Assembly: GCA_001799675.1 (NCBI GenBank)
Contig: MGTX01000024.1
Coordinates: forward strand, 1 to 64,000
Length of the DNA: 64,000 bases
Direction of reading: 5' to 3'
Source of the DNA: Elusimicrobia bacterium GWA2_66_18
GTDB lineage: Bacteria > Elusimicrobiota > Elusimicrobia > UBA1565 > UBA9628
Part shown: positions 14,109 through 64,000 of the stretch, piece after piece
Numbering within the stretch: position 1 is the first letter of the stretch
Layout of the letters: every line of letters begins with the position of its first letter
Translations under genes and position numbers: made by a program
The notes under the pieces: model-generated
Database searches by the model: none
What the model was told of the DNA's origin: nothing
The model's input: only the letters and a program-made list of their open reading frames with translations

Positions 14109-15289
14109 TTCGCGACCGCTTCGGCGAGCTTGGGCAGGGCCTGCTTCATCGCCGCCAGCGCGGCCTCGATGTTCTCGACCGAGTTGGCATAGGAGAAGCG
14201 GAGATAGCCTTCCCCGTGAGAGCCGAACGACGTGCCGGGCAGGCAGGCGACGCCGGCTTCGCTCAGGAGCGCGTCGGCGAGGGCCTTGGACTTCATGCCC
14301 GTGCCCTTGATGCTGGGGAAGACGTAGAACGCGGCTTTCGGGGTCCTGCAGGTTACGCCCGGCAGGGAGTTCAATCCTTTCACGATCACGTCCCGTCGGC
14401 GCTTGAACTCAGCCACCATCTTGTCGACGCAGTCCTGCGGGCCGTTCAAGGCTTCGATGGCGGCCATCTGAGAGAAGGACGCGGTGCAGGAATGATCGTT
14501 GGTGGAGAGCTTGGCCATGGCGTCGATGAGCCACCTGGGGCCCACGCCGTAGCCCAGGCGCCAGCCGGTCATGGCCCAGGTTTTGGAGAAGCCGTCGAGC
14601 AGGATGGTTCGCTCCTTCATCCCCGGCAGAGAGAGCAGGGAGAGGTGGCTGCCTTCATAGACGATGCGCGAGTAGATTTCATCGGAAAGGAGCATCGCGT
14701 TCGGGAACTTCGCCAGGGCCTTGGCCACGCGCTCCATGGTGGAGGCGGACATGACGCCGCCCGTCGGGTTGGCGGGCGAGTTGACAATGACGAGTTTCGT
14801 TTTCGGCGTGAGCAGGCGCTCGAACTCCGCCGGGTCGAAGTCGAAGTCGTTTTCTTCCCTGATCGGCAGAGGGACGGCTTTGCCTCCCACGTAGTTGATC
14901 ATGGATTCGTAGATCGGGAAGCCGGGGTTGGGGTAGATGATTTCGTCGCCCGGGTCGACGAGGGCCATGATGGAGAAGAAGAGGATGGGCTTGCCGCCGG
15001 GGACGATGAGGGTCTCCTCGGGGGCGACGGGGACGGCGCGCGTCTTGGAGACGTATTCGGCGACGGCCTTGCGTGCCTCGGGGAGCCCGGCCGAGGGCCC
15101 GTAATGCGTGTAGCCCCGGTCGAGGGCCTTCTTGGCGGCTTCGCGGATGTTCGCGGGGGTGTCGAAGTCGGGTTCGCCGATCTCGAGGTGGACGATCTTG
15201 CGGCCCTGGGCCTCCAGGGCGCGGGCGCGGGCGAGGACCTCGAAGGCGGTTTCGGTTCCCAGGCGGGAATAGCTTTGGGCGAGTTTCAT
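14105..15289 (-). CDS. PLP-dependent aminotransferase, aspartate aminotransferase type
   Basis: 394 residues. Class I/II fold: substrate-binding IGEPDFDTP, PLP contacts NSPANPTGGV and LLSDEIYSRIVYEG, and the Schiff-base lysine in LDGFSKTWAMTGWRLGY. The C-terminal FRFSYANS-type motif (here LRFSYANSVENIEAAL) carries the Arg that binds the carboxylate. This fits the AspC subgroup Ib, which moves amino groups between amino acids and 2-oxoacids in the cytosol. A TAGAAT box lies six bases before the start codon. It is first in a three-gene operon with the ABC exporter and HAD genes. Confidence 0.9.
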   Translation of the reverse strand: MKLAQSYSRLGTETAFEVLARARALEAQGRKIVHLEIGEPDFDTPANIREAAKKALDRGYTHYGPSAGLPEARKAVAEYVSKTRAVPVAPEETLIVPGGKPILFFSIMALVDPGDEIIYPNPGFPIYESMINYVGGKAVPLPIREENDFDFDPAEFERLLTPKTKLVIVNSPANPTGGVMSASTMERVAKALAKFPNAMLLSDEIYSRIVYEGSHLSLLSLPGMKERTILLDGFSKTWAMTGWRLGYGVGPRWLIDAMAKLSTNDHSCTASFSQMAAIEALNGPQDCVDKMVAEFKRRRDVIVKGLNSLPGVTCRTPKAAFYVFPSIKGTGMKSKALADALLSEAGVACLPGTSFGSHGEGYLRFSYANSVENIEAALAAMKQALPKLAEAVAK

Positions 15290-52779: not shown

Positions 52780-52786
52780 TCAGAAT

Positions 52787-52876
52787 CGGAGAGGGAGGGA
52801 TTCGAACCCTCGGTACAGCTTTACGCCGTACAACGGTTTAGCAAACCGTCGGTTTCAGCCGCTCACCCACCTCTCC
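52787..52876 (-). tRNA. tRNA-Ser (anticodon GCU)
   Basis: On the minus strand the acceptor GGAGAGG (52870-52876) pairs with CCTCTCC (52788-52794), with a G discriminator. The anticodon loop TTTGCTAAA gives GCU for AGC/AGU serine codons. A long variable arm and the GGTTCGAATCC T-loop confirm a class II serine tRNA. No CCA is encoded. The 5' end faces the integrase gene of a mobile element 220 bases away. Confidence 0.96.
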
Positions 52877-53096
52877 AGAAAGTGAATTACAGTGGAAACT
52901 TAAGTACTTTTCTGCACCCCGTTCACGACACCTTAAAAGCGGGATGGTCTTGTGTGTCCACTTTGGAGGCACTTTGGCATCCAGAGCAACTTGGACATTA
53001 GAGTGCCGCCATGTCCAATCAGAACGTAAATTGAACAGGCCGATTGTATCATATCGATTGGGCTACGCCTAATTTCAGGACGCGGACGGCGGCGGG
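52877..53096. other. Junction region between tRNA-Ser and integrase (possible attachment region)
   Basis: These 220 bases have no gene. They carry two CACTTTGG copies 11 bases apart (52959-52966, 52970-52977) and a perfect 8-base inverted repeat (TTGGACAT at 52991-52998, ATGTCCAA at 53011-53018). Such sites near an integrase gene are typical of integrase arm or excisionase binding. The attachment core itself is not identified. Confidence 0.45.
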
Positions 53097-54155
53097 CTAC
53101 GACTTCTGCGCCAGCGGCGGTACGTAGAAGACTGACTCTTCCGAATCGAACGTTTCCGCGCGGCTCAGATAACTCTGTATCGACTTGGCGTCCGAGTGCC
53201 CGAGTTCGTACTGGAGTTGCCTAAAGCTCTTGACGATCATGGCCCTGTGCACGGCGAAGGTGCCTCGTAAGTCGTGCAGATGGATGTCGGGAAGCCCTGC
53301 AGCTTCTCTCGCCTTAATGAACTGGTGGTGAAGGTAGGAGTACGATAGCGGCGTTGAACTTGTCGGCTTGAGGTAGAAGATGAACCCGCTCCTCGGGTTC
53401 GCCTTGAGCTGGGGAAGCAGTCGGGCAAACCGCGGCCCCATCTCCGCGATGGTGAAGGCCCTCATCGCCTCGCGCATGGGCTTGCGCTGCTTCTCGGTCG
53501 GCAGCAGAAACTTTCCCGGCCGTAAGTCTTCCCGCCGGAAATCCAGAGCCTCCCCCACCCGTGCCCCGGTCAGGATCAAGAACTCAATGAACGGCTTAAT
53601 CGTAGGGTCGCAGTGAGACAGGAGCTTGTCGATCTCCGGGAGCTTAAGCCAGATGCCGCTTCGGTTCGCCGCCGGCAGCCCGCGGACCTTCGGTATTCGG
53701 TTCTCTCGGACGTAGCCCAGGGCGACGGCATAGTCCATCACGCGGCCTAATGCGCTTAAGCGCCGCTTGATCGTACTGTTCGCCAGGCCGTCGGCAAGCC
53801 AGGCCACCTTGGTCTCCTCCACGTCCTGCCGCGTGATCTCGTGGAGCAGCTTCTTGCCCAACGGTTTAAACGAGGCGCTGACGAGGTCAACCTCGGCATC
53901 GTAGGAACTTCGGTTCGGCAGGCGCGGCTTCGCAGCGCTGGGTAAATACTTCTGGTCTGTGAATTCAGTCAGAGACATCGGTGCGCCCTTCGCCGCCAAG
54001 TTGGAATCCTTGTCCGTGCCGCCGTTGAGGAAGGCCACGAGGGCCTCCATCGTCACCGTTCGACGGATGCGCACCTTCTGGTGGTGAACGTTAAACTCCA
54101 CGAGATTCCGGCTCACACGCTTGACGTTGAGCGGGTATCCCTCGGCCTTAGGCAT
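53097..54155 (-). CDS. Tyrosine recombinase (integrase) of the mobile element
   Basis: 352 residues from ATG 54155, sharing one base with the HTH gene stop (TAATG). The N-terminal half has an arm-binding and a SAM-like core-binding domain (about 60-150). Catalytic residues: R199 in TGARVGEAL, H294 and R297 in HLHDLRGTF, H320 in LGHSDAKS, and Y329 in IQSYLSR. It catalyses integration and excision; the neighbouring tRNA-Ser is the obvious target. All residues are present, so the gene looks active. Confidence 0.93.
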   Translation of the reverse strand: MPKAEGYPLNVKRVSRNLVEFNVHHQKVRIRRTVTMEALVAFLNGGTDKDSNLAAKGAPMSLTEFTDQKYLPSAAKPRLPNRSSYDAEVDLVSASFKPLGKKLLHEITRQDVEETKVAWLADGLANSTIKRRLSALGRVMDYAVALGYVRENRIPKVRGLPAANRSGIWLKLPEIDKLLSHCDPTIKPFIEFLILTGARVGEALDFRREDLRPGKFLLPTEKQRKPMREAMRAFTIAEMGPRFARLLPQLKANPRSGFIFYLKPTSSTPLSYSYLHHQFIKAREAAGLPDIHLHDLRGTFAVHRAMIVKSFRQLQYELGHSDAKSIQSYLSRAETFDSEESVFYVPPLAQKS

Positions 54156-54550
54156 TAGATTAGCCCCACCACCCGACGTTGCTTGCCCTTCTTGAGCGCG
54201 GGGGTGCATTGCCGGGCGATCATGGCACGGATATCCTCCACCGTGAAGAAGTATCGCTTCCCCACACGACGAGGCTTGAGACCCAACTGTTTCCACCGCC
54301 GTGACAGTGACCAGTATGATTGGTGCAGTAGCTTCGCCGCCGTGGCCATGGTGATGAAGCCGAGCCCCGTGGCGGCGGACGGCGGCGGGGCCGAGTCTTC
54401 CAATTCTACCGACGAAACGTGTCGCCCATCCTCGAAGGTTATTTTAAACTCCTGACGCCCCGACCTCATGCCCGATAAGGCTGGCACGTAGCCCTGCCAA
54501 CCATCAATGATATACGTGCCAGCCTTGTCGGCCCGTCCCTTTGGCTCCAT
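54155..54550 (-). CDS. Excisionase-like HTH protein
   Basis: 131 residues. The C-terminal half (about 66-115: MATAAKLLHQSYWSLSRRWK, then KPRRVGKRYFFTVEDIRAMI) is a MerR/HTH_17-like winged helix as in excisionases (Xis/RDF). The N-terminal half is small and beta-rich (FKITFEDGRHVSSVEL) and has no known match. Its stop overlaps the integrase start, so the two proteins are probably made together, as expected for recombination directionality. Confidence 0.65.
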   Translation of the reverse strand: MEPKGRADKAGTYIIDGWQGYVPALSGMRSGRQEFKITFEDGRHVSSVELEDSAPPPSAATGLGFITMATAAKLLHQSYWSLSRRWKQLGLKPRRVGKRYFFTVEDIRAMIARQCTPALKKGKQRRVVGLI

Positions 54551-54571
54551 AGGCGTTCCGAGATTCTCGGC

Positions 54572-54793
54572 CTATGCCAGCCTGCCGCCGTTGAGGTTAT
54601 AGACTTCAACCTTAAGAGGCCCAGAGCGGCTTTGTCGGAACCGTGCTTCTACGAGGACCCTTAATTTTATCCGGACAGGGCATCTAGTATTTGTGCAAAT
54701 GCACAATCGTTGATTGGCCCCAAGCTCGCGGACTTTGATTGGCTCGCAGCATTCATCGCACATCGCTTCAACTCGCAACTTAGTTTTCTTCAT
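54572..54793 (-). CDS. Small zinc-ribbon protein
   Basis: 73 residues. Cysteines are arranged as MCDECCEP and LCICTNTRCP, a ribbon pattern that recalls phage Ogr/Delta transcription activators. A basic stretch follows. It lies between the clamp and HTH genes in the element operon. A regulatory or DNA-binding role is possible; the family is not certain. Confidence 0.5.
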   Translation of the reverse strand: MKKTKLRVEAMCDECCEPIKVRELGANQRLCICTNTRCPVRIKLRVLVEARFRQSRSGPLKVEVYNLNGGRLA

Positions 54794-54827
54794 ACATTTC
54801 TCCTATCAAGTGAGACTTGATACATCC

Positions 54828-56135
54828 CTAACGGATCATGTTCAACACGTACAGGGTGCGGTCGTGCTCATTGAGACGGCAGAAAGTCATGCCCCTGAAT
54901 GTGCCCGTTCCGAAGTCGATTATGTTCCCGTCGAGAGCGTCGATGACGCCCCTGAGGGCTTTGGAGTCGATCTTCATGGAGAACGCCGGGTCCGGGGTCA
55001 GCCAGGTGACCTGCACAGTCCCCTCGGAGATCTTCCGCAGCCCCTTCATGGCCACGAACTGCAGGTCGTCGCCGCCGCGGGCGATGGTGATAGAAGTCAG
55101 GTCCTCCCCAAAGAGCTCTGCGCGCGTAAGGGCCCCAACAAACGACCACCGGTCCGCCAGGAACGTGGGCGTGTAGACTTCCAACGCCTTGAGCACGACG
55201 TCGAGCTTGACGAAGTCGGGCATCTGCCCGAACACGGCCACGTCCTCTCCGACGGTCACCTCGACTTGGTTGGAGTTAATACGAAGTTGCACTGAATCCG
55301 CGTAACCTTCGGTCAACAGCTTCTTGAGAGGCAGAACCATCGGCGCCGGAACGGTGAAAGTTGCTGAGCCAGTCCCTTGCTTGTATACGGCGATACATTG
55401 GGCATCCGTTGACTGGACCGAGTCCGGCCCGAACCCGACGCCGTACATGTTCGCGGCGGCGGGGGCGCTGGACATGGCGGCGGCGGCGACCTGCAGCCCC
55501 TTGAGGAAGTCATATGTCTTGAATTCCACAGGTTTGAAGTTCGGGTCGGTCGGGACCTTAAACTCATCCCCGAGACGGTGATCCTCAACGGCATGGAGGT
55601 ACCATTGGGAGGTGCCAGTTTTCATGGTGCAGATGTAGGTGGAGGTGTTGAGCGAGAAACTGACGAGGGAGTCGCAGAGCTTCAGGCTGTCGAGGACTTC
55701 CTCCCCGACAAGAACGATGACACCGGGGGCGGGGCACCTCTCGTAGAGCCGGACCTTCACGTCCACCGTTATCGCGCCGTTGGAGGCTCTGAGGGTCGCC
55801 TCCCCCTCACCGAGGGTAATACGCAGATACCGAAGGGATGGGTTGGTCGCTTTATCCGGCCAAACAGGCTTCAGCTTTGAAAGGCCTTTCTGGAGGTCCC
55901 TCTTTCCGAAGACACACTTGATCTCCACGGCAGGCATATTCACGGCGACCGCATTCTCGGGAGACGGCATCTCGACAAGCGGCTGCACGGCGGCGGCGGC
56001 GGCAACCACGGCAATGCGCTGCTCGGCAATCCTCTCGCCAAACTCCTCGATGACACCCTGTTCCACGACCTGGAGCTCCATGGCCTCTTGGGCTGTTTCC
56101 TGCTCGACATCCACCTTCTCAACGACGGTTTCCAT
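54828..56135 (-). CDS. DnaN-like DNA polymerase sliding clamp on the mobile element
   Basis: 435 residues. AGGAGG precedes the ATG. About 70 extra N-terminal residues (Glu/Gln/Val-rich) come before a three-domain beta-clamp pattern. Typical parts: LRITLGEGEATLRASNGAI, VIVLVGEEVLDSLK, FTVPAPMVLPLKKLL, VTVGEDVAVFGQMPDFVK, and the final LYVLNMIR, close to the usual YVxMPMR end. The clamp rings DNA and gives processivity to polymerases. Finding it right after a rolling-circle Rep gene is unusual. Divergence from a chromosomal DnaN is clear, so it is not a recent copy. Confidence 0.75.
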   Translation of the reverse strand: METVVEKVDVEQETAQEAMELQVVEQGVIEEFGERIAEQRIAVVAAAAAVQPLVEMPSPENAVAVNMPAVEIKCVFGKRDLQKGLSKLKPVWPDKATNPSLRYLRITLGEGEATLRASNGAITVDVKVRLYERCPAPGVIVLVGEEVLDSLKLCDSLVSFSLNTSTYICTMKTGTSQWYLHAVEDHRLGDEFKVPTDPNFKPVEFKTYDFLKGLQVAAAAMSSAPAAANMYGVGFGPDSVQSTDAQCIAVYKQGTGSATFTVPAPMVLPLKKLLTEGYADSVQLRINSNQVEVTVGEDVAVFGQMPDFVKLDVVLKALEVYTPTFLADRWSFVGALTRAELFGEDLTSITIARGGDDLQFVAMKGLRKISEGTVQVTWLTPDPAFSMKIDSKALRGVIDALDGNIIDFGTGTFRGMTFCRLNEHDRTLYVLNMIR

Positions 56136-56164
56136 AGTACGGCCTCCTGCCCTCTAAGGGGCGT

Positions 56165-57043
56165 TTATTTCCAATGGCGAGCGTGTCCGCACGTCTCGCC
56201 GAACCCGATCTGAGATTTGTCCCGGCACACGGAGCAGAGCCCGTGGCGGCGAGTGACGATGCCGAAGGCTTGGAAGAGCGGAGCGCCGCCGAGCGAGCTG
56301 TAAACTTCCGAGACGGCCCTGGGCTCCAAGGAGCTGCACGGCCCCTTGAGCATATAGAGGAAGGTTCGTTTGATCTCGTCCTTGGGGACGGTGCGGAGGT
56401 CCACGACGTAGGCCGACGTGTAGCCCTTCCAGCTCCGCGAGAGCCACGACGAGGTGAGCCCGTCGGCGTCAATCAGGGCGTGGAGGTGCGGGTGGAACAG
56501 GTCACGCTTGCGCGAGTAGGAGAACTCCAAGCAGTAGAAGCCCCCGGCGCAGCGCTCTTGGAAGTGCTGCAGTCGGCGCATCCGCCGGAAGTTGGCGGCG
56601 AGGTCGCTGCGGACGCCAGCGAGATGACGGCGACCGCGTAGCGTGAGGGTCAGGAATTGGGGATGGATAATGCTGGCCGCCGCGACGCCCCAGCGGTCGT
56701 CCAGGCGGCGCTTACGTTGGTGGGAGCAGAAGAAGCACAGCGGTTGATGGCAGGAGAAGATGAAGGGCGTGCCGTTCAGGTGCTTGCAGGTGGTCCGGCA
56801 GAAGTCCACGCGGTCGGCCTGCTCGTGGCGCCCGAGGCGCCGAAGCGTGCGGGCCAGCCGCTTGTTCTCCCGCCCGCCCTTATCAAGCCATGCCTGGTAT
56901 GAAGGAGATATATCCGAAGCCGTAATGTCGTATGGATGACGGCTTATGTTATGGACTGTTCTCGATGGGGACAACCAATGTGCTTGGGGGTCGTCATTTG
57001 ATAAAATCTCCTCGAACGGAGTCGGAAGTGTCAGGGCATTCAT
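56165..57043 (-). CDS. Rolling-circle replication initiator (Rep_1-type HUH protein)
   Basis: 292 residues. A zinc-like Cys cluster (C82, C86, C98, C103, C106; PLCFFCSHQRKRRLDDRW) is followed by motif 1 FLTLTLRG (130-137), the HUH motif HPHLH (184-188), and the catalytic Tyr region LYMLKG (Y230, K233). This order and the RxxRxxxxxW stretch match pUB110/pC194-type Rep proteins that nick the plus origin. A late CSVCRDKSQIGFGETCGHARH adds another possible zinc site. It heads the Rep-clamp-ribbon-HTH-integrase cluster. TACACT lies eight bases before the ATG. Confidence 0.85.
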   Translation of the reverse strand: MNALTLPTPFEEILSNDDPQAHWLSPSRTVHNISRHPYDITASDISPSYQAWLDKGGRENKRLARTLRRLGRHEQADRVDFCRTTCKHLNGTPFIFSCHQPLCFFCSHQRKRRLDDRWGVAAASIIHPQFLTLTLRGRRHLAGVRSDLAANFRRMRRLQHFQERCAGGFYCLEFSYSRKRDLFHPHLHALIDADGLTSSWLSRSWKGYTSAYVVDLRTVPKDEIKRTFLYMLKGPCSSLEPRAVSEVYSSLGGAPLFQAFGIVTRRHGLCSVCRDKSQIGFGETCGHARHWK

Positions 57044-57106: not shown

Positions 57107-57841
57107 TTGAGACCCCCAGTTATCGACCGCCCCAGTTGGAGTGAATTCTCGTCATCCGGCGAAGTCCCGAGGCTTCACGCGGAGTTCGCGACGTTGAAGT
57201 GCGACACGAATCTGCTTCGCGCTCTCTGGGACCGCTATGAGGCTCCCCCCTCGAAGAAAACGCGGTTGTTCTGGAAACGAATGGCGACTCAGATCCGCGA
57301 CTTCGAAGGACTACGAGACTCACTTGTCGAACACGAGGACTGTGGCTGGGCGGACCTCGACAGATGTATCGACGATCTCCGATGTGCGGTCGAGGTCGGC
57401 ATTGCTTTCGATGGGCAGCAGGCGCATCGTCCATCGAACTGGGTTCGGAACTACTGGGCAGGTGCCCTCGTGCCGTATCTAGCGCTTAAAACTAGACAGC
57501 CCAACTGGAAGTGGCTGGCGGAATGGTTAAGCGTTGTCGAGGGTAAGAAGCTAGAACCCGCCCAATTACGGCATTGGGCCAGTCGGATTCGAAGCGAAGC
57601 ACCTGCTAGTCTCCCAAAGCGAGGAAAGCGGTCCATACTGAATAAGAGGATCTCGCTGTTGTTCGAGAGCGGCAAACGCGATCTCTTGGCCTTAAGCTAT
57701 GGAGCGTTGAACGTCGTAACGTGGCTTAGACGACGCAAAGGTAGCACCAAGGCGCCAGATCGCTATCTTGCAAAGGCATATCGGTGCTGGCCGTCCTTTA
57801 AGAAAGTGTTCCCACACATTTCTTACCTTCGCCGGTCCTAG
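57107..57841 (+). CDS. Unknown protein divergent from rep
   Basis: 244 residues from TTG 57107. Rich in Trp and Arg (WKWLAEWLSVVEGKKLEPAQ, RYLAKAYRCWPSFKKVF) with no recognised motif, signal or membrane segment. The short repeat ATAACCTAAATAACCT lies just upstream (57086-57101). No link to a known family can be made; position next to rep hints at a replication or maintenance role only. Confidence 0.5.
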   Translation: MRPPVIDRPSWSEFSSSGEVPRLHAEFATLKCDTNLLRALWDRYEAPPSKKTRLFWKRMATQIRDFEGLRDSLVEHEDCGWADLDRCIDDLRCAVEVGIAFDGQQAHRPSNWVRNYWAGALVPYLALKTRQPNWKWLAEWLSVVEGKKLEPAQLRHWASRIRSEAPASLPKRGKRSILNKRISLLFESGKRDLLALSYGALNVVTWLRRRKGSTKAPDRYLAKAYRCWPSFKKVFPHISYLRRS

Positions 57842-57950
57842 TAGACCTTCGAGAAGCACTCCGTTGTAGCTATACCGTTTGACGGTACCCCCTGGTTAGA
57901 ACTTCTCCGTCTTGATGGGATTGGATTCGAAACGAGAGATGGCTTATTGC

Positions 57951-58601
57951 TTATCCCAAAAAGCCGCCAAGGTCCCACTCGATTGGGGGTAAGCCAGTTC
58001 CGCTTCCCGCGGAAGACTTGTCGATGATGGACTTCCGGTGTGCAGCACCAACAAGGAAGATGCCACGTGCCACAGCGTTACGAGCGGAGTAGAGCGCGAT
58101 GTTCCGCATCATCTCTCGGTCGCGGCGCTCATTCGTTTGGCTCCAGAGATCGTAGAGCTCGCGCAGTCGACGGTCGCCGGTCCATTCAATCGTAGCCAGC
58201 AACTCATGATAGATGTCTGCCCACGCCTGGATACACCTATCGCTGTTGAGATAGGGAAAGCCACCTGCCCGGGTTTCAACGCTGTGGCGATCTACCAAGC
58301 GACGGTAATCGGGACTCGTCCGCTCGACGGCACGGAACATATCCTTCGTATCATCGAAGAACTTCTGTTCAGGTTTGGCGAGGTCAACAGGTTCAACATC
58401 GACGTGATGGCTCGCGAGATAGCGCGCAACGGTGATGGACTCGAGGGAGCCGTGGGAACCGTCCTTGTAGCGGTCAACATGAGAGGCGGGAATCTCTGCG
58501 AAAATGACGTCCGGTTGAGAGCGCTCATGAATTGCCTGCAGCGCCCCAACATTAGCAAGTCCGCTCTCTGCGTGAACTGTCCCGACCAACGATACACGCA
58601 T
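57951..58601 (-). CDS. TraB/GumN (TIKI)-like protein
   Basis: 216 residues. N-terminal VSLVGTVHAESGLANVGAL carries the GTxH motif, DVIFAEIPASH a conserved Glu, and FLVGAAHRKSIID the second GxxH motif near residue 185, preceded by RDREMMRNIALYS. These are the marks of the TraB/PrgY/GumN/TIKI fold, metal-dependent peptidases or pheromone-shutdown proteins. No signal peptide, so it is cytosolic here. Last of three overlapping genes (59661 to 57951). Confidence 0.65.
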   Translation of the reverse strand: MRVSLVGTVHAESGLANVGALQAIHERSQPDVIFAEIPASHVDRYKDGSHGSLESITVARYLASHHVDVEPVDLAKPEQKFFDDTKDMFRAVERTSPDYRRLVDRHSVETRAGGFPYLNSDRCIQAWADIYHELLATIEWTGDRRLRELYDLWSQTNERRDREMMRNIALYSARNAVARGIFLVGAAHRKSIIDKSSAGSGTGLPPIEWDLGGFLG

Positions 58602-59299
58602 TAGTCGCCGGCCTGCAATGAGGTATGAAAAGGATGCTGTCCTCCCTCGGTAGCCGCCCGGGCGGCGAACTTCGACCGCTTAGCGCCTTCAACTGTTTTT
58701 ACGTGACCCCATGAGTACACCATCTGGAGGACGGCTTTAGTCGCCTCGTCGAATGCCTGTGCTGCGGCGAGACGCTCATCCGACTTCCAGCGGCGACCAC
58801 CGCGAGGCCCAACAACCACTCGCACCGCTCCATCGTTGGTCAAGTCTTCAACCGTACTCATGATTGCCGACCGCGAGAAGTGCACGAAGCCAGACGTTGT
58901 GGTGTAGACCTGCGGGAGCCACGGGTAAATCCTTCCGACACGAGTAGTGAGTTCCTTATCCGTTAGGGGCTTCCCATCGGGAGCTTTGAGCTGGGATAGC
59001 GGGCGATCCTCCAAAAACGCTTTGAGCGCGTCACTCCCGCTCGGGAAGAGCCCGGCCGCGTATATCCGAAGAACGTTGTCCAACTGCATGCGCAGAAGAG
59101 GACCGGCGCACAGATAATTTCCGGAGCGAAGCATGCTCAGGAAACCCTGGAGCAGCATGAGCGACCGCTTGATGACTCCAACAGCAATCAGGTCCAGCGG
59201 GAAGATGTTCCCACCGTCGGCGCGGAGCACGGCCACAATGAGCTTCTGGTGCTCTTTCTCGCGACCCTTAATCTGGCGAGCGACGGTCTGCCAGTTCAC
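58601..59299 (-). CDS. Unknown helical protein in the TraB-like operon
   Basis: 232 residues. Helices dominate the N-terminal half (RSLMLLQGFLSMLRSGNYLC, GPLLRMQLDNVLRIYAAGLF). A central YTTTSGFVHFSRSA gives a His in a conserved-looking setting. It recalls HEPN-like or similar small cargo proteins but no family is assigned. Its stop shares one base with the TraB-like start and its start overlaps the gene before by 4 bases. Confidence 0.55.
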   Translation of the reverse strand: MNWQTVARQIKGREKEHQKLIVAVLRADGGNIFPLDLIAVGVIKRSLMLLQGFLSMLRSGNYLCAGPLLRMQLDNVLRIYAAGLFPSGSDALKAFLEDRPLSQLKAPDGKPLTDKELTTRVGRIYPWLPQVYTTTSGFVHFSRSAIMSTVEDLTNDGAVRVVVGPRGGRRWKSDERLAAAQAFDEATKAVLQMVYSWGHVKTVEGAKRSKFAARAATEGGQHPFHTSLQAGD

Positions 59300-59661
59300 T
59301 GCTTCTCCGCCCTAATCGGTCCGGGCTCCAGGTCGGTGACGACGGATTCTCCGACGGCTTCGAACCACTCGTGGAACAGGGCAAGGGTGCGCGGCTTCGG
59401 CCACAGGTCTTCATCCGTATACCAGGCCGAAAGCTCCAGTTCGAAGATCTCCTCGAAGTAATTCTCCAGCGGAGCGGTCTCATCCTCTTCCTTGGGGTCC
59501 TCGCCGAGCAGGTAGACCGAGACCCGCTTGTGGAGGTCCTTGGCGTGCTCCGGGGCCTCGGCATCCACGCTTGCGGCCCAGTCGAGGTATGGCTGGCGAG
59601 GTCGGACGACGAGTGCGGCTCGGTTAATAGATCGGGGCATATGCTTGAGGCTCTTGGCCAT
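59296..59661 (-). CDS. Unknown acidic protein, first of the TraB-like operon
   Basis: 121 residues from ATG 59661 (ATG 59667 is possible). Hallmarks are SINRAALVVRPRQPYLDWA near the start and an acidic middle (LLGEDPKEEDETAPLENYFE). No known domain. TATAGA lies six bases before ATG 59661, so the mRNA is probably leaderless. Overlaps the next gene by 4 bases. Confidence 0.55.
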   Translation of the reverse strand: MAKSLKHMPRSINRAALVVRPRQPYLDWAASVDAEAPEHAKDLHKRVSVYLLGEDPKEEDETAPLENYFEEIFELELSAWYTDEDLWPKPRTLALFHEWFEAVGESVVTDLEPGPIRAEKQ

Positions 59662-59667
59662 GAGCAT

Positions 59668-59919
59668 TCTATAACTTGCGGGACGTCGTGGCTCTTCGAG
59701 AGCCTTCGTGTCGGGACGGGAGACGGCCAGGCGAGAGTCTGGATTGGGCCAGGGAGTACCGGCTTCACGGAATAACTGGATTACCCGCGCGAGGGCGTGA
59801 ACACCGCTCTTCCGCCTAATTCGAGAGAGTTCCCCTGTCCGATGGATCTCGAGTAAGGAGACCTATAATTACAGGGCAGCAGAGGAGCAGGTAGCGGCCC
59901 GGGCTAACTCGGGGAGCAG
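59668..59919. other. Gene-poor stretch in the mobile element
   Basis: 252 bases with no convincing gene. TATAGA at 59668-59673 (minus) is the -10 of the TraB-like operon. The remaining DNA shows no strong repeat, RNA or terminator. Confidence 0.4.
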
Positions 59920-60219
59920 CTAATACTCGTCCGGCAGGAGGAAGGTGACAACGCTGCCGCCGCCGCATCCGCAGCCGCAGTCCTTTGGATGATCGTCACG
60001 GATTGCGTAGAACCGGAACGGCGCTCGGATCTTGAGGGTACGGCCTTCATCCTCCGGGAGGTAGCGGCCAGCAGGGACGTCAGGATCGCCTACGATCCAG
60101 GTAGGTCCGCCCTTGGAGAGCGTACTGAGGGCCATGGAGGCCGGTGAGAAGAGGGCGTCGGAAACGAAGCCGTGCTGCTTCAAGGCACCGATGTAGCCCG
60201 GCGTAGCGAAGGTCTTCAT
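59920..60219 (-). CDS. Small unknown protein with a Cys/Gly motif
   Basis: 99 residues. The opening FATPGYIGALKQHGFVSDAL is helical; near the end KDCGCGCGGGSVVTFLLP has three cysteines that might bind metal. No family assigned. TATATC lies six bases before the ATG (60226-60231), the same spacing as at many other genes here. Confidence 0.5.
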   Translation of the reverse strand: MKTFATPGYIGALKQHGFVSDALFSPASMALSTLSKGGPTWIVGDPDVPAGRYLPEDEGRTLKIRAPFRFYAIRDDHPKDCGCGCGGGSVVTFLLPDEY

Positions 60220-60267
60220 GACCTTGATATACGCGGATGAAGGGAAGAACCGTTGGAGCGAGAGCGT

Positions 60268-60825
60268 CTATCTAATGAACTTCCCACCCATGCGGTCGAA
60301 GAAGATTGCGGAGGATGGCGTGCCCTTGGGAGCTAGCCTTTGCTCGCGCATGTGCCGGAGAGTGAGTGCGACGTGGCCCCGGTCCCCCTGTAGCATTCCG
60401 GAAAGTAACTGCTCGACCTTCTTGCTCTTGTAGCCCCTGACTGCGTGCTGCCATAATCCTGCGCCCGCTGCCCTGCGAACGAATGGACAGCGATGCTCCA
60501 ACGCGACCACGAGCACTTGCCGAGCTGCTCGGCCCATGCGGCCGAGAGCCCACGCCACCAACTCGACGACGGCCTCTTGGGGAGTATCCAGCGCTTGGGC
60601 GAGGTATGGCAGGACAACTTCAGCGGAGATGAGCGACAGCCCCCACGCCGCGCGGGTGGCCACATAACGGTTCTGACTCTTGAGGGCGGCGAGCAGCGCG
60701 AGCACGGCCTCGATGGACTTGGTCCTACCCAAGACTTCGGCGGCCCGCTCTCGTATTGGGAGGTCTTTGGAGTACAGGTGCTCGCGGACTGCCTGAACAT
60801 CCGGCATGACGTTGTGGTTGCCCAT
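60268..60825 (-). CDS. HEAT-repeat protein
   Basis: 185 residues from ATG 60825; a GTG one codon upstream is possible, but TATAGC (60832-60837) lies exactly six bases from the ATG. Repeats such as PIRERAAEVLGRTKSIEAVL and AVVELVAWALGRMGRAARQV form HEAT/PBS-lyase-like helices. Likely a protein-binding scaffold. Cargo of the element. Confidence 0.7.
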   Translation of the reverse strand: MGNHNVMPDVQAVREHLYSKDLPIRERAAEVLGRTKSIEAVLALLAALKSQNRYVATRAAWGLSLISAEVVLPYLAQALDTPQEAVVELVAWALGRMGRAARQVLVVALEHRCPFVRRAAGAGLWQHAVRGYKSKKVEQLLSGMLQGDRGHVALTLRHMREQRLAPKGTPSSAIFFDRMGGKFIR

Positions 60826-60869
60826 CACTCAGCTATACGTCCGCCGGCCGAGCAACAGCGCTGGAGTAG

Positions 60870-62039
60870 TTACTGGCTTTCGTGGACGAGCACCGCTTCT
60901 AGCGAGGGCACGATCTTCTCGCTGCCGGAGACCGCGACATACTTATAGGCGCCCACCCCCTTCGTGATGCCCCGGAACACATGGGGCGGAGCGGAGTGCT
61001 CCCCGAAGTTCACCAGGGCCGGGGCCTCCCCGCCCAAGAGATATAGGCCGCTGCTTCGGGAGAGGATCTGCTGGGTCGTCCCCACGAACTGAAAACAGCG
61101 ACCCTTCACATCATACGGGTTCAACTGGTATAGGACTTCCAGCGGCTCCATCCCTTTGGGACACTTCTTGCCGATGGCTTTGGCGTCTGAGGGCTTCGCG
61201 ATCCCGCCTCGAATCCAATCGGCGGCGCTCTTGGGGGCGTAGCCGGCGTCCCGCCACTTCACTGCTTCCGAGAGTCCGAACTGGGCGCGACTCCACATAA
61301 TGGCGTCTTTCACACTGAATCCGGCCTTCTGCCAGTCATGGATCTGGCGGCCAATCACACTCAGCTCCCGCTCCTCATCTTTAGCGAGTCCAAGCTTCTT
61401 GAATTCCTGAGCTTCGCCAGCAGGCAAGGTTGCGGCCCAAACTATTGTCGTCTCAATTGACAGGCCTGCGTCCTTATAAGCTTTGGCGGCTTCAACCGGA
61501 ATAGTGGCGCGCAGATTCACCGCATCCTTCACACCGAATCCCGCGTCACGCCAAAGCTTGGCCGTCTTGAATGTGAACCCAGCCTTTTCCCATTCGTCTG
61601 CTCCCTGGGGATCAAAAGCTACGGATTTCCACAGAGCGGCAGCTTGAGGAGTAAATCTCAAAGTTGTCCATTTCGCACTTTCCTGAGGCGAGAATCCTGC
61701 GTCCTTTAAACTCGCGGCATTTTCAGGAATGGAAACTCCAGCATCGATCCAAGTCCTGGCTTCTTGCGGATTTAACCCTGCAAGTTTCCATGCGGATGCG
61801 GTAAGACAAGGAGTGAACACAGAGCAACCACCACCGCCAGGAGTAGGGCAGTAGTGGCAGCGGTTATCAAAGGGATGTCGAGATAGAGGATTAAAGCCCG
61901 CAACCTTCCACTCGGAATATTCCGAATAGGTGAAGCCCGCGGAGTTCCAGACCTGGAACTCCTGGTCTGCAGCTTCTTTCAGCGTTGCGCATCCCGACAG
62001 CCAGACCATAACACCAAGGATGGCCATTCTCTTAGTCAT
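60870..62039 (-). CDS. Lipoprotein with many W-x-x-A-G-F repeats
   Basis: 389 residues. Lipobox LSGC at residue 17, with GGAGG before the start. Residues 27-275 hold about 14 imperfect repeats of 13-19 residues with the pattern W..AGF....A (WNSAGFTYSEYSEW, WEKAGFTFKTAKLWRDAGF, WQKAGFSVKDAIMW, WRDAGYAPKSAADW). A Cys-rich insertion lies near 62-80 (CHYCPTPGGGGCSVFTPC). The C-terminal 110 residues are different and may form a beta domain. Outer-membrane or periplasmic location is likely. No known function. Confidence 0.6.
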   Translation of the reverse strand: MTKRMAILGVMVWLSGCATLKEAADQEFQVWNSAGFTYSEYSEWKVAGFNPLSRHPFDNRCHYCPTPGGGGCSVFTPCLTASAWKLAGLNPQEARTWIDAGVSIPENAASLKDAGFSPQESAKWTTLRFTPQAAALWKSVAFDPQGADEWEKAGFTFKTAKLWRDAGFGVKDAVNLRATIPVEAAKAYKDAGLSIETTIVWAATLPAGEAQEFKKLGLAKDEERELSVIGRQIHDWQKAGFSVKDAIMWSRAQFGLSEAVKWRDAGYAPKSAADWIRGGIAKPSDAKAIGKKCPKGMEPLEVLYQLNPYDVKGRCFQFVGTTQQILSRSSGLYLLGGEAPALVNFGEHSAPPHVFRGITKGVGAYKYVAVSGSEKIVPSLEAVLVHESQ

Positions 62040-62056
62040 AACATCCGCCTCCTACG

Positions 62057-62089
62057 CTAGCCTATGTTGGGCTAGACCATCTTAGGCTA
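62057..62089. promoter_or_regulatory. Operator-like repeat cluster between lipoprotein and XRE genes
   Basis: CTAGCC at 62057-62062 and GGCTAG at 62070-62075 form an inverted repeat, and TAGCCTA (62058-62064) is matched by TAGGCTA (62083-62089). These shared half-sites sit between two divergent genes, one of which encodes an XRE-type repressor. Self-regulation is the simplest reading. Confidence 0.5.
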
Positions 62090-62122
62090 CTACCATAACA
62101 AAGCCCCGTCAAGGGGCAACTC

Positions 62123-62368
62123 ATGAGGAAAAACGTACGGAAGTCGTCCAGTGTCTTTAAACCCGGGTATCAGCGGTTTTTGAAGCGCCTGCGACAGGCT
62201 CGGGAAGACGCCGACCTTTCCCAAACCAAGGTGGCGAAGGCATTGCGACGGCCGCAGACCTACGTCTCGAAGGCGGAGATTGGCGAGCGCCGCCTCGACG
62301 TGCTCGAAGTTCAGGAGTTCGCGAAGCTCTACCACAAGCCGCTCAGCTACTTCTTCCCGAAGGGATAA
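62123..62368 (+). CDS. XRE-family HTH regulator
   Basis: 81 residues. The helix-turn-helix is DLSQTKVAKALRRPQTYVSK, followed by EIGERRLDVLEVQEFAKLY, as in Cro/CI-type DNA-binding proteins. It ends LSYFFPKG, the usual end of small XRE proteins. It is divergent from the lipoprotein gene and has repeat half-sites upstream. Its tail overlaps the convergent zinc-ribbon gene by 26 bases. Confidence 0.85.
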   Translation: MRKNVRKSSSVFKPGYQRFLKRLRQAREDADLSQTKVAKALRRPQTYVSKAEIGERRLDVLEVQEFAKLYHKPLSYFFPKG

Positions 62369-62564
62369 ATCCCTTCCCGCAGAAGGGGCACCGAACCATC
62401 TCGAGATAGGACCCGAGCGGCCATAGCGGCAGTCCGACCCCGCTGTACTCCAGGTCGTGGCCAGCGTTAGCCCTCACTACGGCCCACGTCACACAGCAGA
62501 CCGTGCCCTTCCCGGCGCAGCCCGGGCAGTCCTGGCGAAGAGCCTTCTTCGAGCGGCGACTCAT
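62343..62564 (-). CDS. Small double-CxxC protein
   Basis: 73 residues with CPGCAGKGTVCC and CPFCGKG, a four-cysteine zinc site as in rubredoxin-like or DnaJ-type ribbons. No family assigned. It overlaps the membrane-protein gene upstream by 4 bases, so it belongs to the small operon that starts at the sigma-like gene. Confidence 0.5.
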   Translation of the reverse strand: MSRRSKKALRQDCPGCAGKGTVCCVTWAVVRANAGHDLEYSGVGLPLWPLGSYLEMVRCPFCGKGFIPSGRSS

Positions 62565-62833
62565 GGTGGGCCCCTCCTACCGAAGGGTCTGAATGAAGAA
62601 CCGCGGGTCGCGATGAAGCTGCCCAGAGCGGACCCAATCGCGGCTCCTGCCTGAAAGATCCAGAACTCCGGACCTTGCTTCACGGCCCACTGCACCATGA
62701 AGAACTGGCAGCCACCAAGGCCCAGGGAGGTGACGAAAGACCGACGCCAGAGCCCCTTCACGCTGTGGTTATGCTGCATGCAAGCCAACGCTGTGGTGGT
62801 GATGCCGAGAATAAACGGTATCAGGGCTCGCAC
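62561..62833 (-). CDS. Small membrane protein
   Basis: 90 residues from GTG 62833, placed within the end of the nuclease gene. Two hydrophobic helices (LIPFILGITTTALACM and FWIFQAGAAIGSALGSFIA) with a basic loop (KGLWRRSF). Could be holin-like, but this is not supported by a motif. The earlier in-frame start at 62887 would overlap the nuclease gene by 67 bases and is less likely. Confidence 0.45.
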   Translation of the reverse strand: MRALIPFILGITTTALACMQHNHSVKGLWRRSFVTSLGLGGCQFFMVQWAVKQGPEFWIFQAGAAIGSALGSFIATRGSSFRPFGRRGPP

Positions 62834-63735
62834 GGTCCCTTCTGCAGAGTGGCGTGGTGCGCGAGCAACTTCAGACACTCGGGCCATACGAGCCAGCCCA
62901 TGCGCTGAGTCATCTGCTTGAAGTACTCGTCGGGCTCATCGGCCCTGTGCGGAAGGTCCCGCTTCGCCAGTTCCCATCGCCCGACCTCATCCCAGTTGCG
63001 GAGGCTGCGCATGTCCGAGCCGCGGTATCGCTTCATGGCCTTGGTGTAGATCTTCGCGCCTCGATCCATGGTGAGCAGAATGAAGCGGGCATCCTTGAAC
63101 CCTTCCCGTCGAGCTACGTCATCAACAAGCTCCATATTGCGGAGAATCTGGTTCCTGCCCGGACTGAACGTGCCGGAGGCTGTGGCATCCGAATAAAGCT
63201 TGGCCTCAATGAAGACCAGAAGCTGGTTGCCAATACGGATCTCACAATCAACCTCCGTTGGCCGCTCAGGGGTTTCAGTCGGGTCGCCTTGCATGATCTT
63301 CTCAAGACGTTCCTTGGCCCGAACCCGAGCGTCATAGTTCTCCAGGTGCTTGAAGGCGGCTTCGCCTTCCTTCAGCAGCTTAGCCCCGAGCCATTGGAGG
63401 TATATCTTTGGGGCCGTGTGCGGCACCCAGAACCGAACCTGGGCGTTGTCGATATGCGGGGCGTAGGCTTTGGCGAACCGCTGGGAGACGGCGGCGCGGA
63501 AGAAGTCCAAGAGCCATTGCTTCGTGGGCAGCTTTGACATCGCATGGAAGAACGACCAGGTGAGTGCGTCCTCTGAGTTCTCCGACAGGAGAGCCCGTCC
63601 TCGCTCCCCGTATTTCCGCAGAGCGTCTTGGACCTGCGGGTCGTCCGTGTCGGAGAGATCGATGCCCGCGAGATTATGGGCGAGGGAGGTATGAATCCTG
63701 ACGCCAGAAGGAGATAAGTATGCGTTCTCAAACAT
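62821..63735 (-). CDS. PD-(D/E)XK-like nuclease
   Basis: 304 residues. The catalytic pattern is EVDCEIRIG, then LLVFIEAKL (D...ExK) at about residues 162-180, followed by a conserved helix (GRNQILRNMELVDDV). A helical N-terminal part (about 1-140) may recognise DNA. No methyltransferase is beside it, so it may be a repair or defence nuclease rather than a restriction enzyme. It starts within the last eight bases of the sigma-like gene. Confidence 0.65.
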   Translation of the reverse strand: MFENAYLSPSGVRIHTSLAHNLAGIDLSDTDDPQVQDALRKYGERGRALLSENSEDALTWSFFHAMSKLPTKQWLLDFFRAAVSQRFAKAYAPHIDNAQVRFWVPHTAPKIYLQWLGAKLLKEGEAAFKHLENYDARVRAKERLEKIMQGDPTETPERPTEVDCEIRIGNQLLVFIEAKLYSDATASGTFSPGRNQILRNMELVDDVARREGFKDARFILLTMDRGAKIYTKAMKRYRGSDMRSLRNWDEVGRWELAKRDLPHRADEPDEYFKQMTQRMGWLVWPECLKLLAHHATLQKGPCEP

Positions 63736-64000
63736 AGGCAGGGTCGGGGTATTGCCGACGGAAGGCCAGTCTCGCTCGGTGAAGCCGTGAGCGGAGCGTG
63801 CCGAGCGGGACGCCGATGATCCGAGCGGCCTTCTCGTAGGTCATCCCGTCCATATAGCAGAGGGTCAGGGCTACACGATTGGCAACGCTCATCCTCTTCA
63901 AGGTCCACTGCACGGTCTTGATGGTCTCCCGACGCTCCAGAGACTCTTGGGCATTATCTCGGGAGTCTGGGATGCGCGCATCGAGACTTGGACCGCCATC
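63728..64000 (-). CDS. ECF-type sigma factor, C-terminal part (partial)
   Basis: The frame is open from the right edge; about 90 residues are visible. The region-4 helix-turn-helix is clear: VALTLCYMDGMTYEKAARII, then GVPLGTLRSRLHRARLAFRR. Its start lies outside the window, so region 2 cannot be checked. A sigma factor encoded on a mobile element would let it switch on its own genes. It overlaps the nuclease gene by 8 bases. Confidence 0.75.
   Translation of the reverse strand, partial: DGGPSLDARIPDSRDNAQESLERRETIKTVQWTLKRMSVANRVALTLCYMDGMTYEKAARIIGVPLGTLRSRLHRARLAFRRQYPDPAYV

What the first reader, a model, noticed from the sequence alone, without database searches (positions are those of the whole stretch)
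53097..57043. Rolling-circle Rep, its own sliding clamp and an integrase in one operon
Five minus-strand genes run Rep_1-type HUH initiator, DnaN-like clamp, zinc ribbon, excisionase-like HTH, tyrosine integrase, with gaps under 35 bases or overlaps. The Rep has HPHLH and Tyr-x-x-Lys; the clamp shows all three clamp-domain patterns plus a 70-residue extension. Rolling-circle plasmids normally borrow the host clamp, so a dedicated clamp suggests an element that loads or redirects the host polymerase, or competes with host DnaN. I know of no described element with this exact gene set, though I could not search.
Basis: partly seen in the sequence, partly recalled or inferred. Interest (0 to 1): 0.82.

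Follow-up and report, generated by a model that had tools for sequence, protein, structure and literature searches.

The report
Integrating element carrying its own clamp
A mobile DNA element sitting in a tRNA gene of an uncultured bacterium carries, in one gene row, a rolling-circle replication starter, its own copy of the ring that holds the copying enzyme on DNA, and the enzymes that move it in and out of the chromosome; elements of this general kind are known, but this pairing is unusual.

Summary
In an Elusimicrobia genome, five minus-strand genes at 53097-57043 encode a Rep_1-type HUH initiator, a DnaN-like clamp, a small zinc-ribbon-like protein, an excisionase-like HTH and a tyrosine integrase, with gaps of 29, 34, 21 and -1 nt. 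They form the end of an integrated island, not a free plasmid: composition changes at tRNA-Ser(GCT), whose 5' half is the attachment core. A same-genus sister (G009) has a related integrase (49% identical), HTH and HUH Rep at the same tRNA, and both its ends are visible: 43-nt exact repeats enclosing 20.05 kb. In the window only the tRNA-side end is seen; the contig stops at 66062, so the element is at least 13.2 kb, or its far end is lost. The clamp is very divergent, no recent copy of host dnaN, absent from the G009 island, and without close relative in 340 genomes of the phylum. Best reading: an integrative element that excises and replicates by rolling circle, with an acquired clamp serving its own replication (role inferred). 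Precedents: actinobacterial AICEs have rep-xis-int at tRNAs, and one figure legend lists a clamp gene; phages and large plasmids carry dnaN. New variant of a known kind.

The parts
52786..52877 (-). tRNA-Ser(GCT), target gene of the element
   Evidence: ARAGORN; a tRNA-Ser(GCT) lies within about 3 kb of the DinG-like helicase in 10 of 12 genus loci taken
52838..52881 (-). attachment core (tRNA 5' half up to the anticodon loop), tRNA-side att site; placed by comparison with sister islands
   Evidence: 43 or 44 nt of this core are duplicated at both ends of the G009 and G003 islands
53097..54155 (-). tyrosine integrase, 352 aa
   Evidence: PF00589 2.7e-14; R199, H294, R297, Y329 invariant in the 4-row alignment A1
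54155..54550 (-). excisionase-like HTH, 131 aa
   Evidence: PHROG 66, 4.6e-5; a similar HTH lies directly before the integrase in 7 of 16 related loci and, more weakly, in G009 (29% over 70 residues, 5e-5)
54572..54793 (-). zinc-ribbon-like protein, 73 aa
   Evidence: cysteine pattern read by eye; no family match in Pfam or NCBIfam; only G000 among 235 genomes
54828..56135 (-). beta-clamp-like protein, 435 aa with N-terminal extension
   Evidence: PHROG 947 2.5e-24, TIGR00663 1.9e-7
56165..57043 (-). Rep_1-type HUH replication initiator, 292 aa
   Evidence: PF01446 4.9e-7, under the gathering score; catalytic residues conserved with plasmid Reps
54803..54822 (.). 8-bp hairpin with CTTGATA in both arms; weak candidate nick site (likeness to the pC194-family site is recalled)
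   Evidence: weak statistics
57107..64000 (.). presumed cargo of the same island, continuing to the contig end at 66062
   Evidence: no att copy between here and 66062; G+C mostly below that of 44-52.5 kb

Best explanation
This is the recombination-replication end of an integrative mobile element in an Elusimicrobia bacterium, inserted into the 5' half of tRNA-Ser(GCT). Shown: the island edge at the tRNA, the att core (from sister islands), intact Int, Xis-like, Rep and clamp genes in one row. Inferred: Int with Xis excises the element as a circle; Rep nicks its origin through Tyr230 and leaves a 3'-OH; the element's clamp, loaded there by the host clamp loader, holds a host polymerase on the circle, so that replication depends less on host DnaN. 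The clamp was probably acquired from a phage or plasmid; the sister element manages without it.
For: Gene row and spacing. Rep catalytic residues and clamp profile match. G+C in 500-base windows is 0.598-0.752 at 44-52.5 kb and 0.524-0.652 from 52.75 kb on. G009: Int 49% identical, HTH, HUH Rep (27% over 218 residues, 1e-11) at the same tRNA-Ser, with 43-nt exact repeats at 14505 and 34556 of the contig enclosing 20.05 kb; 2-kb bins 0.57-0.63 G+C inside, 0.67-0.77 outside. G003: 44-nt repeat around a 3.7-kb island. Both distal copies and 4 of 12 tRNA sites have GCTAGAAT or GCTATCAT upstream; the other 8 sites, the window's among them and all 5 with an integrase beside them, do not (grouping made by eye from these sequences). 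In the sister island no virion or conjugation family among 10 proteins scanned in Pfam and PHROGs or read by eye in the rest. AICEs show the same logic.
Against: No second att copy on the contig or in the 34 contigs, so the window element's far end and size are unknown. No origin is shown; the hairpin is weak. No other Rep-clamp pair was found, so function rests on one sequence. The clamp pocket is only partly kept by eye (STDAQCIAV and C-terminal YVLNMIR against host STDGRRLAV and FVVMPMRL). Single-sequence AlphaFold failed (pLDDT 33). The clamp is missing from the sister island, so it is not needed for this kind of element.
Confidence: 0.52

Rival explanations
1. The clamp is a passenger that acts on the host and not in element replication: it competes with host DnaN for clients, or stands in for it when phage or toxin inhibitors bind the host clamp.
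For: The sister island with related Int, HTH and Rep lacks it and has in that slot a 225-aa gene that matches nothing in Pfam, PHROGs or PADLOC. The sister's cargo is defence-like: N6_N4_Mtase 4.6e-42, ResIII 4.1e-14, Abi_C 3.1e-11. A second clamp as resistance factor (griselimycin) is recalled, not from a call.
Against: It lies inside the Rep-to-Int row, directly after Rep, and not among the cargo; no PADLOC model matches the six proteins tested, five of them from the window.
Confidence: 0.2
2. The region is one end of a larger temperate phage or phage-plasmid, and the clamp serves phage replication.
For: A PD-(D/E)XK exonuclease (PF12705 3.9e-29, PHROG 69 1.9e-21) and a sigma factor (PHROG 1740 2.4e-25) lie on the same strand at 63.7-66.1 kb. 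dnaN stands about 3.6 kb from a site-specific integrase gene on Mesorhizobium plasmid MesoLjLa5; a phage-like replication cluster with clamp, PolA and AAA loader is in G019.
Against: No virion family among the proteins of 57-66 kb that were scanned (a few small ORFs were not scanned). In the complete 20-kb sister none among 10 proteins scanned in both libraries; five further ORFs there were only read by eye.
Confidence: 0.2
3. A decaying island remnant whose clamp no longer works.
For: Second att copy not found; very long clamp branch, 4.63 changes per column.
Against: All five frames are open with close spacing and a good ribosome site before the clamp.
Confidence: 0.08

Closest known systems
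Actinomycete integrative and conjugative elements (AICEs; pSAM2, Frankia AICEs)
   Same: rep, xis, int in that order at a tRNA gene; RCR initiator; excision and rolling-circle replication; a Frankia figure legend lists a DNA_pol3_beta_2 gene (PMC3218068: sections 7 and 10 read, other passages seen)
   Different: AICEs carry an FtsK-type tra gene and those with tyrosine recombinases mostly use the tRNA 3' end; here no tra was recognised and the 5' half is used. The text I read does not say which AICE holds the clamp gene or where in it
Rep_1 rolling-circle plasmids (pSpnP1, pDP1, pRGF00045)
   Same: HUH histidines, Tyr-x-x-Lys and four cysteines conserved
   Different: circles of 3.2-5.4 kb; Reps 21-27% identical to this one. 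Only stretches of about 1.8-1.9 kb of them were read, in which no clamp or integrase is annotated
dnaN-carrying phages and plasmids
   Same: an element-borne clamp; MesoLjLa5 also has ssb and an integrase within about 8 kb
   Different: no product named Rep among the 43 features of the Nocardiopsis plasmid or the 27 of 76 features seen of MesoLjLa5; many are hypothetical. The smallest record in a spread of 60 of 513 plasmid matches was 29 kb
pT26-2-type archaeal integrated plasmids with PCNA
   Same: a clamp (PCNA) named as a Rep-type protein specific to Methanococcales members (PMC6972569, passages only)
   Different: archaeal, MCM-type replication proteins, theta mode thought probable by the authors

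Membership tests
Beta sliding clamp (DnaN-like) | full-length clamp profile match | tested here: met
   PHROG 947 2.5e-24 over 75-409; TIGR00663 1.9e-7 but far below its equivalog cut-off, so a clamp homologue and not DnaN proper
Beta sliding clamp (DnaN-like) | dimeric three-domain ring fold | tested here: inconclusive
   single-sequence model, pLDDT 33
Beta sliding clamp (DnaN-like) | client-binding pocket residues | tested here: inconclusive
   partly alike in alignment A3, read by eye
Rep_1 / HUH rolling-circle initiators | motif 1, HUH and catalytic Tyr | tested here: met
   Pfam match under the gathering score
Rep_1 / HUH rolling-circle initiators | double-strand origin with nick site | tested here: inconclusive
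   CTTGATA hairpin 54803-54822, weak statistics
Integrative element in a tRNA gene | direct repeats of the target at both ends | tested here: inconclusive
   met in G009 and G003; in the window only one end is on the contig
AICE | rep-xis-int next to a tRNA gene | tested here: met
AICE | FtsK/SpoIIIE-type transfer gene | tested here: not met
   none among the proteins scanned in the stretch held; the far end is missing, so absence is provisional; the host is not an actinomycete
Temperate phage | virion genes | tested here: not met
   none among the proteins scanned at 57-66 kb; provisional, since the contig ends there

The most novel reading that the evidence does not exclude
A dedicated initiator-clamp module: a rolling-circle element that brings both the nickase and the processivity ring, so that it can recruit a host polymerase of its choice to the nicked origin independently of host DnaN, packaged with its own integration genes.
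Probability: 0.33. Interest if true: 0.68.

Novelty: new variant of a known kind. Interest (0 to 1): 0.5.

Why it matters
Rolling-circle elements are taken to rely on the host for elongation after the nick (stated for pSAM2 in PMC3218068, section 7). A clamp encoded beside the initiator would make it possible to ask which replisome step limits such elements, and a natural pair (G000 with, G009 without the clamp, related Int, HTH and Rep) gives the comparison. It also documents tRNA 5'-half islands in Elusimicrobia; in the one search I made on mobile elements of that group, none of the ten papers listed (of 34) is titled on them.

Tried and rejected
Close relatives of the clamp: none by tblastn in 50,697 phage or 72,556 plasmid records, none in genome contigs or viral contigs by pattern scan, none beside G000 in 58 relatives. 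At E<=0.01 it matched 17 of 340 genomes of the phylum: the window's own and 16 weak ones (21-28% identity, E 4.5e-5 to 0.009); 11 of these 16 places fall on dnaN-type places listed, the other 5 I could not check because that list is cut. Rep and Int in viral contigs: no relative. Weak Rep matches in G240 (one stop inside; another gene is read there) and G161 (three stops; not examined) were set aside; one in G004 covers 101 of 323 positions and may be another Rep type. Alignment A2 used contains the G000 and G009 Reps, so their own matches are by construction. Best Pfam match of the G009 Rep is REP_ORF2-G2P (5e-5, below cut-off), not Rep_1.

Recent duplication of host dnaN: rejected, since the clamp has a 4.63-change branch and at most 18% identity to the other rows (10 of 40 chromosomal clamps and 4 of 5 other clamps put in; its place in the tree is unresolved, long branches meet). 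A profile of 40 chromosomal clamps gives it only 8.4 bits. Profile A3 against PDB is not independent, because A3 contains ordinary clamps. att repeat inside the window: only short chance matches. Sigma-70-type promoters in 52.7-58 kb: 0 found, 1.2 expected; terminators 6, 4.9 expected: no support for operon limits.

Literature: ten searches. Those on clamp with rolling-circle, phage or island terms gave no paper or one off the subject by its title (57). 'Not in print' is not claimed beyond these.
Full report
Observation. The five ORFs are present and intact. With corrected starts they run Rep 57043-56165, clamp 56135-54828, zinc-ribbon-like 54793-54572, Xis-like 54550-54155, Int 54155-53097, with gaps of 29, 34, 21 and -1 nt. 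Rep matches Pfam Rep_1 at 4.9e-7, below the curated score, and hits 69 of 72,556 plasmid records by tblastn at E<=0.01, most of the listed ones at features named 'rep' (20 of 69 listed). Aligned with the G009 Rep and three plasmid Reps, C82, C98, C103, C106, E173, H186, H188, Y230 and K233 are invariant. The clamp matches PHROG 947 'DNA polymerase processivity factor' at 2.5e-24 over residues 75-409 and TIGR00663 over 77-298; Pfam gives only the N-terminal domain below cut-off. AGGAGG precedes Met1 of the clamp and nothing similar precedes Met67, so the N-terminal extension is probably translated.

Host and setting. The nearest named integrase loci are Elusimicrobia or Elusimicrobiota MAGs (3 of the 8 loci, 49-55% identical). 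The genome has its own dnaN on another contig (G000:C22:54719-55834, 1.6e-87). 500-base windows have G+C 0.598-0.752 at 44-52.5 kb and 0.524-0.652 from 52.75 kb on, the change lying at tRNA-Ser(GCT). A DinG-like helicase gene is found in 16 of 19 genus genomes; of 12 loci taken from the genus, 10 have tRNA-Ser(GCT) within about 3 kb of it, 2 show none.

The element. In G009 the same tRNA-Ser has an integrase 49% identical, an HTH protein (29% over 70 residues, 5e-5), a 225-aa gene and a HUH Rep (27% over 218 residues, 1e-11; its best Pfam match is REP_ORF2-G2P below cut-off). A 43-nt exact copy of the tRNA 5' half lies 20.05 kb away, with G+C 0.57-0.63 between the copies and 0.67-0.77 outside. 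The island's cargo includes N6_N4_Mtase, ResIII and Abi_C proteins; no virion or conjugation family was met in 10 proteins scanned. In G003 a 44-nt copy encloses a 3.7-kb island without a recognisable integrase. Upstream of both distal copies and of 4 of 12 tRNA sites stands GCTAGAAT or GCTATCAT; the other 8 sites lack it, among them the window's and the 5 with an integrase beside them. I therefore read 52838-52881 as the tRNA-side att core of an occupied site. No second copy occurs on the contig (66062 bases) or elsewhere in the assembly with up to 3 mismatches over 25 bases. The element is at least 13.2 kb, or its far end is lost. Integrases of this family are a common module: 17 matches, the window's own included, in 15 of 235 genomes of the class at E<=1e-30. 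Of 16 such loci scanned, 10 hold a tRNA gene (Ser, Cys, Glu and Lys, or Tyr) and 6 none. A Rep profile made from the G000 and G009 Reps found, apart from these two, one partial match (G004) in 235 genomes.

The clamp. It has no close relative: in 340 genomes 16 others match weakly at E<=0.01, six of them under 1e-3, and 11 of the 16 places fall on dnaN-type places. PHROG 947 finds second full or partial clamps in several other genomes of the phylum, among them a phage-like replication cluster with PolA and an AAA loader in G019 and phage-like surroundings in G095, G237 and G260 (by eye). Of 14 other genomes with the related integrase, 12 show one PHROG 947 match and 2 (G009, G014) none, not even a chromosomal dnaN, so for these two the genome test is uninformative, but G009's island was read in full. 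In a 17-row tree the element clamp has a branch of 4.63 against 0.06-0.83 for ten chromosomal clamps; its place is unresolved.

Mechanism. Shown: anatomy, catalytic residues, att core in sister islands. Inferred: excision by Int and Xis, rolling-circle replication by Rep, loading of the clamp at the 3'-OH by the host loader, recruitment of host polymerase. Not shown: origin, transfer, loading. A hairpin of 8-bp arms with CTTGATA in both arms lies between the clamp and zinc-ribbon genes (54803-54822; z -1.93, 12 of 200 shuffles fold as well; three other stretches folded gave z 1.48, 0.25 and -1.64). CTTGATA occurs 5 times in 16 kb against 0.90 expected, 1 of 200 shuffles reaching 5, and 3 times in 19.7 kb of G009 against 0.69, 9 of 200 shuffles, once 27 nt before the first possible Rep start but on the other strand. 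That CTTGATA resembles the pC194-family nick site is recalled.

What is known. [quoted passage not shown] sections 7 and 10 read, other passages seen). With the host DnaN as query, 513 of 72,556 plasmid records match (chromosome-sized records included) and 147 of 50,697 phage records (some look like host sequence by name or size). MesoLjLa5 has ssb, dnaN and an integrase within about 8 kb. PCNA is noted for Methanococcales pT26-2 plasmids (PMC6972569, passages). Hence the parts and the general plan are known; the tight pairing of a Rep_1-type initiator with a clamp inside an integration operon was not found elsewhere in these searches.

Verdict. Real, biologically sensible, a new variant of integrative rolling-circle elements, with a clamp whose role is inferred.

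Noticed in passing
L030:11432-15215 (G003): A 3.7-kb island between 44-nt tRNA-Ser repeats without a recognisable integrase, with a SEC-C gene and a Fic/Doc-like gene (by eye); may be moved in trans by related integrases.
   Followed up: partly
G009 contig C325:14505-34598 (L150, L032): A complete 20.05-kb island with type III restriction-modification-like genes and an Abi_C protein, a second tyrosine recombinase by eye, and a 225-aa gene in the clamp's slot that matches no family.
   Followed up: partly
window 54472-54531: 19-bp inverted repeat (95%) with a 22-nt spacer at the start of the excisionase gene; possible regulatory or recombination site.
   Followed up: no
L026:13731-16061 (window 63.7 kb to contig end): Sigma factor and PD-(D/E)XK exonuclease on the same strand as the operon, phage-like by PHROGs; a 304-aa protein between them matches nothing.
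   Followed up: partly
L130 (G019:C7): Phage-like replication cluster: divergent clamp, uracil-DNA-glycosylase/DNA polymerase A fusion and an AAA clamp-loader-like protein.
   Followed up: partly
L147:919-2487 (G004): 522-aa frame with a Rep-like stretch (MLTLTVRH), partial match to the Rep profile; may be another type of rolling-circle Rep.
   Followed up: no
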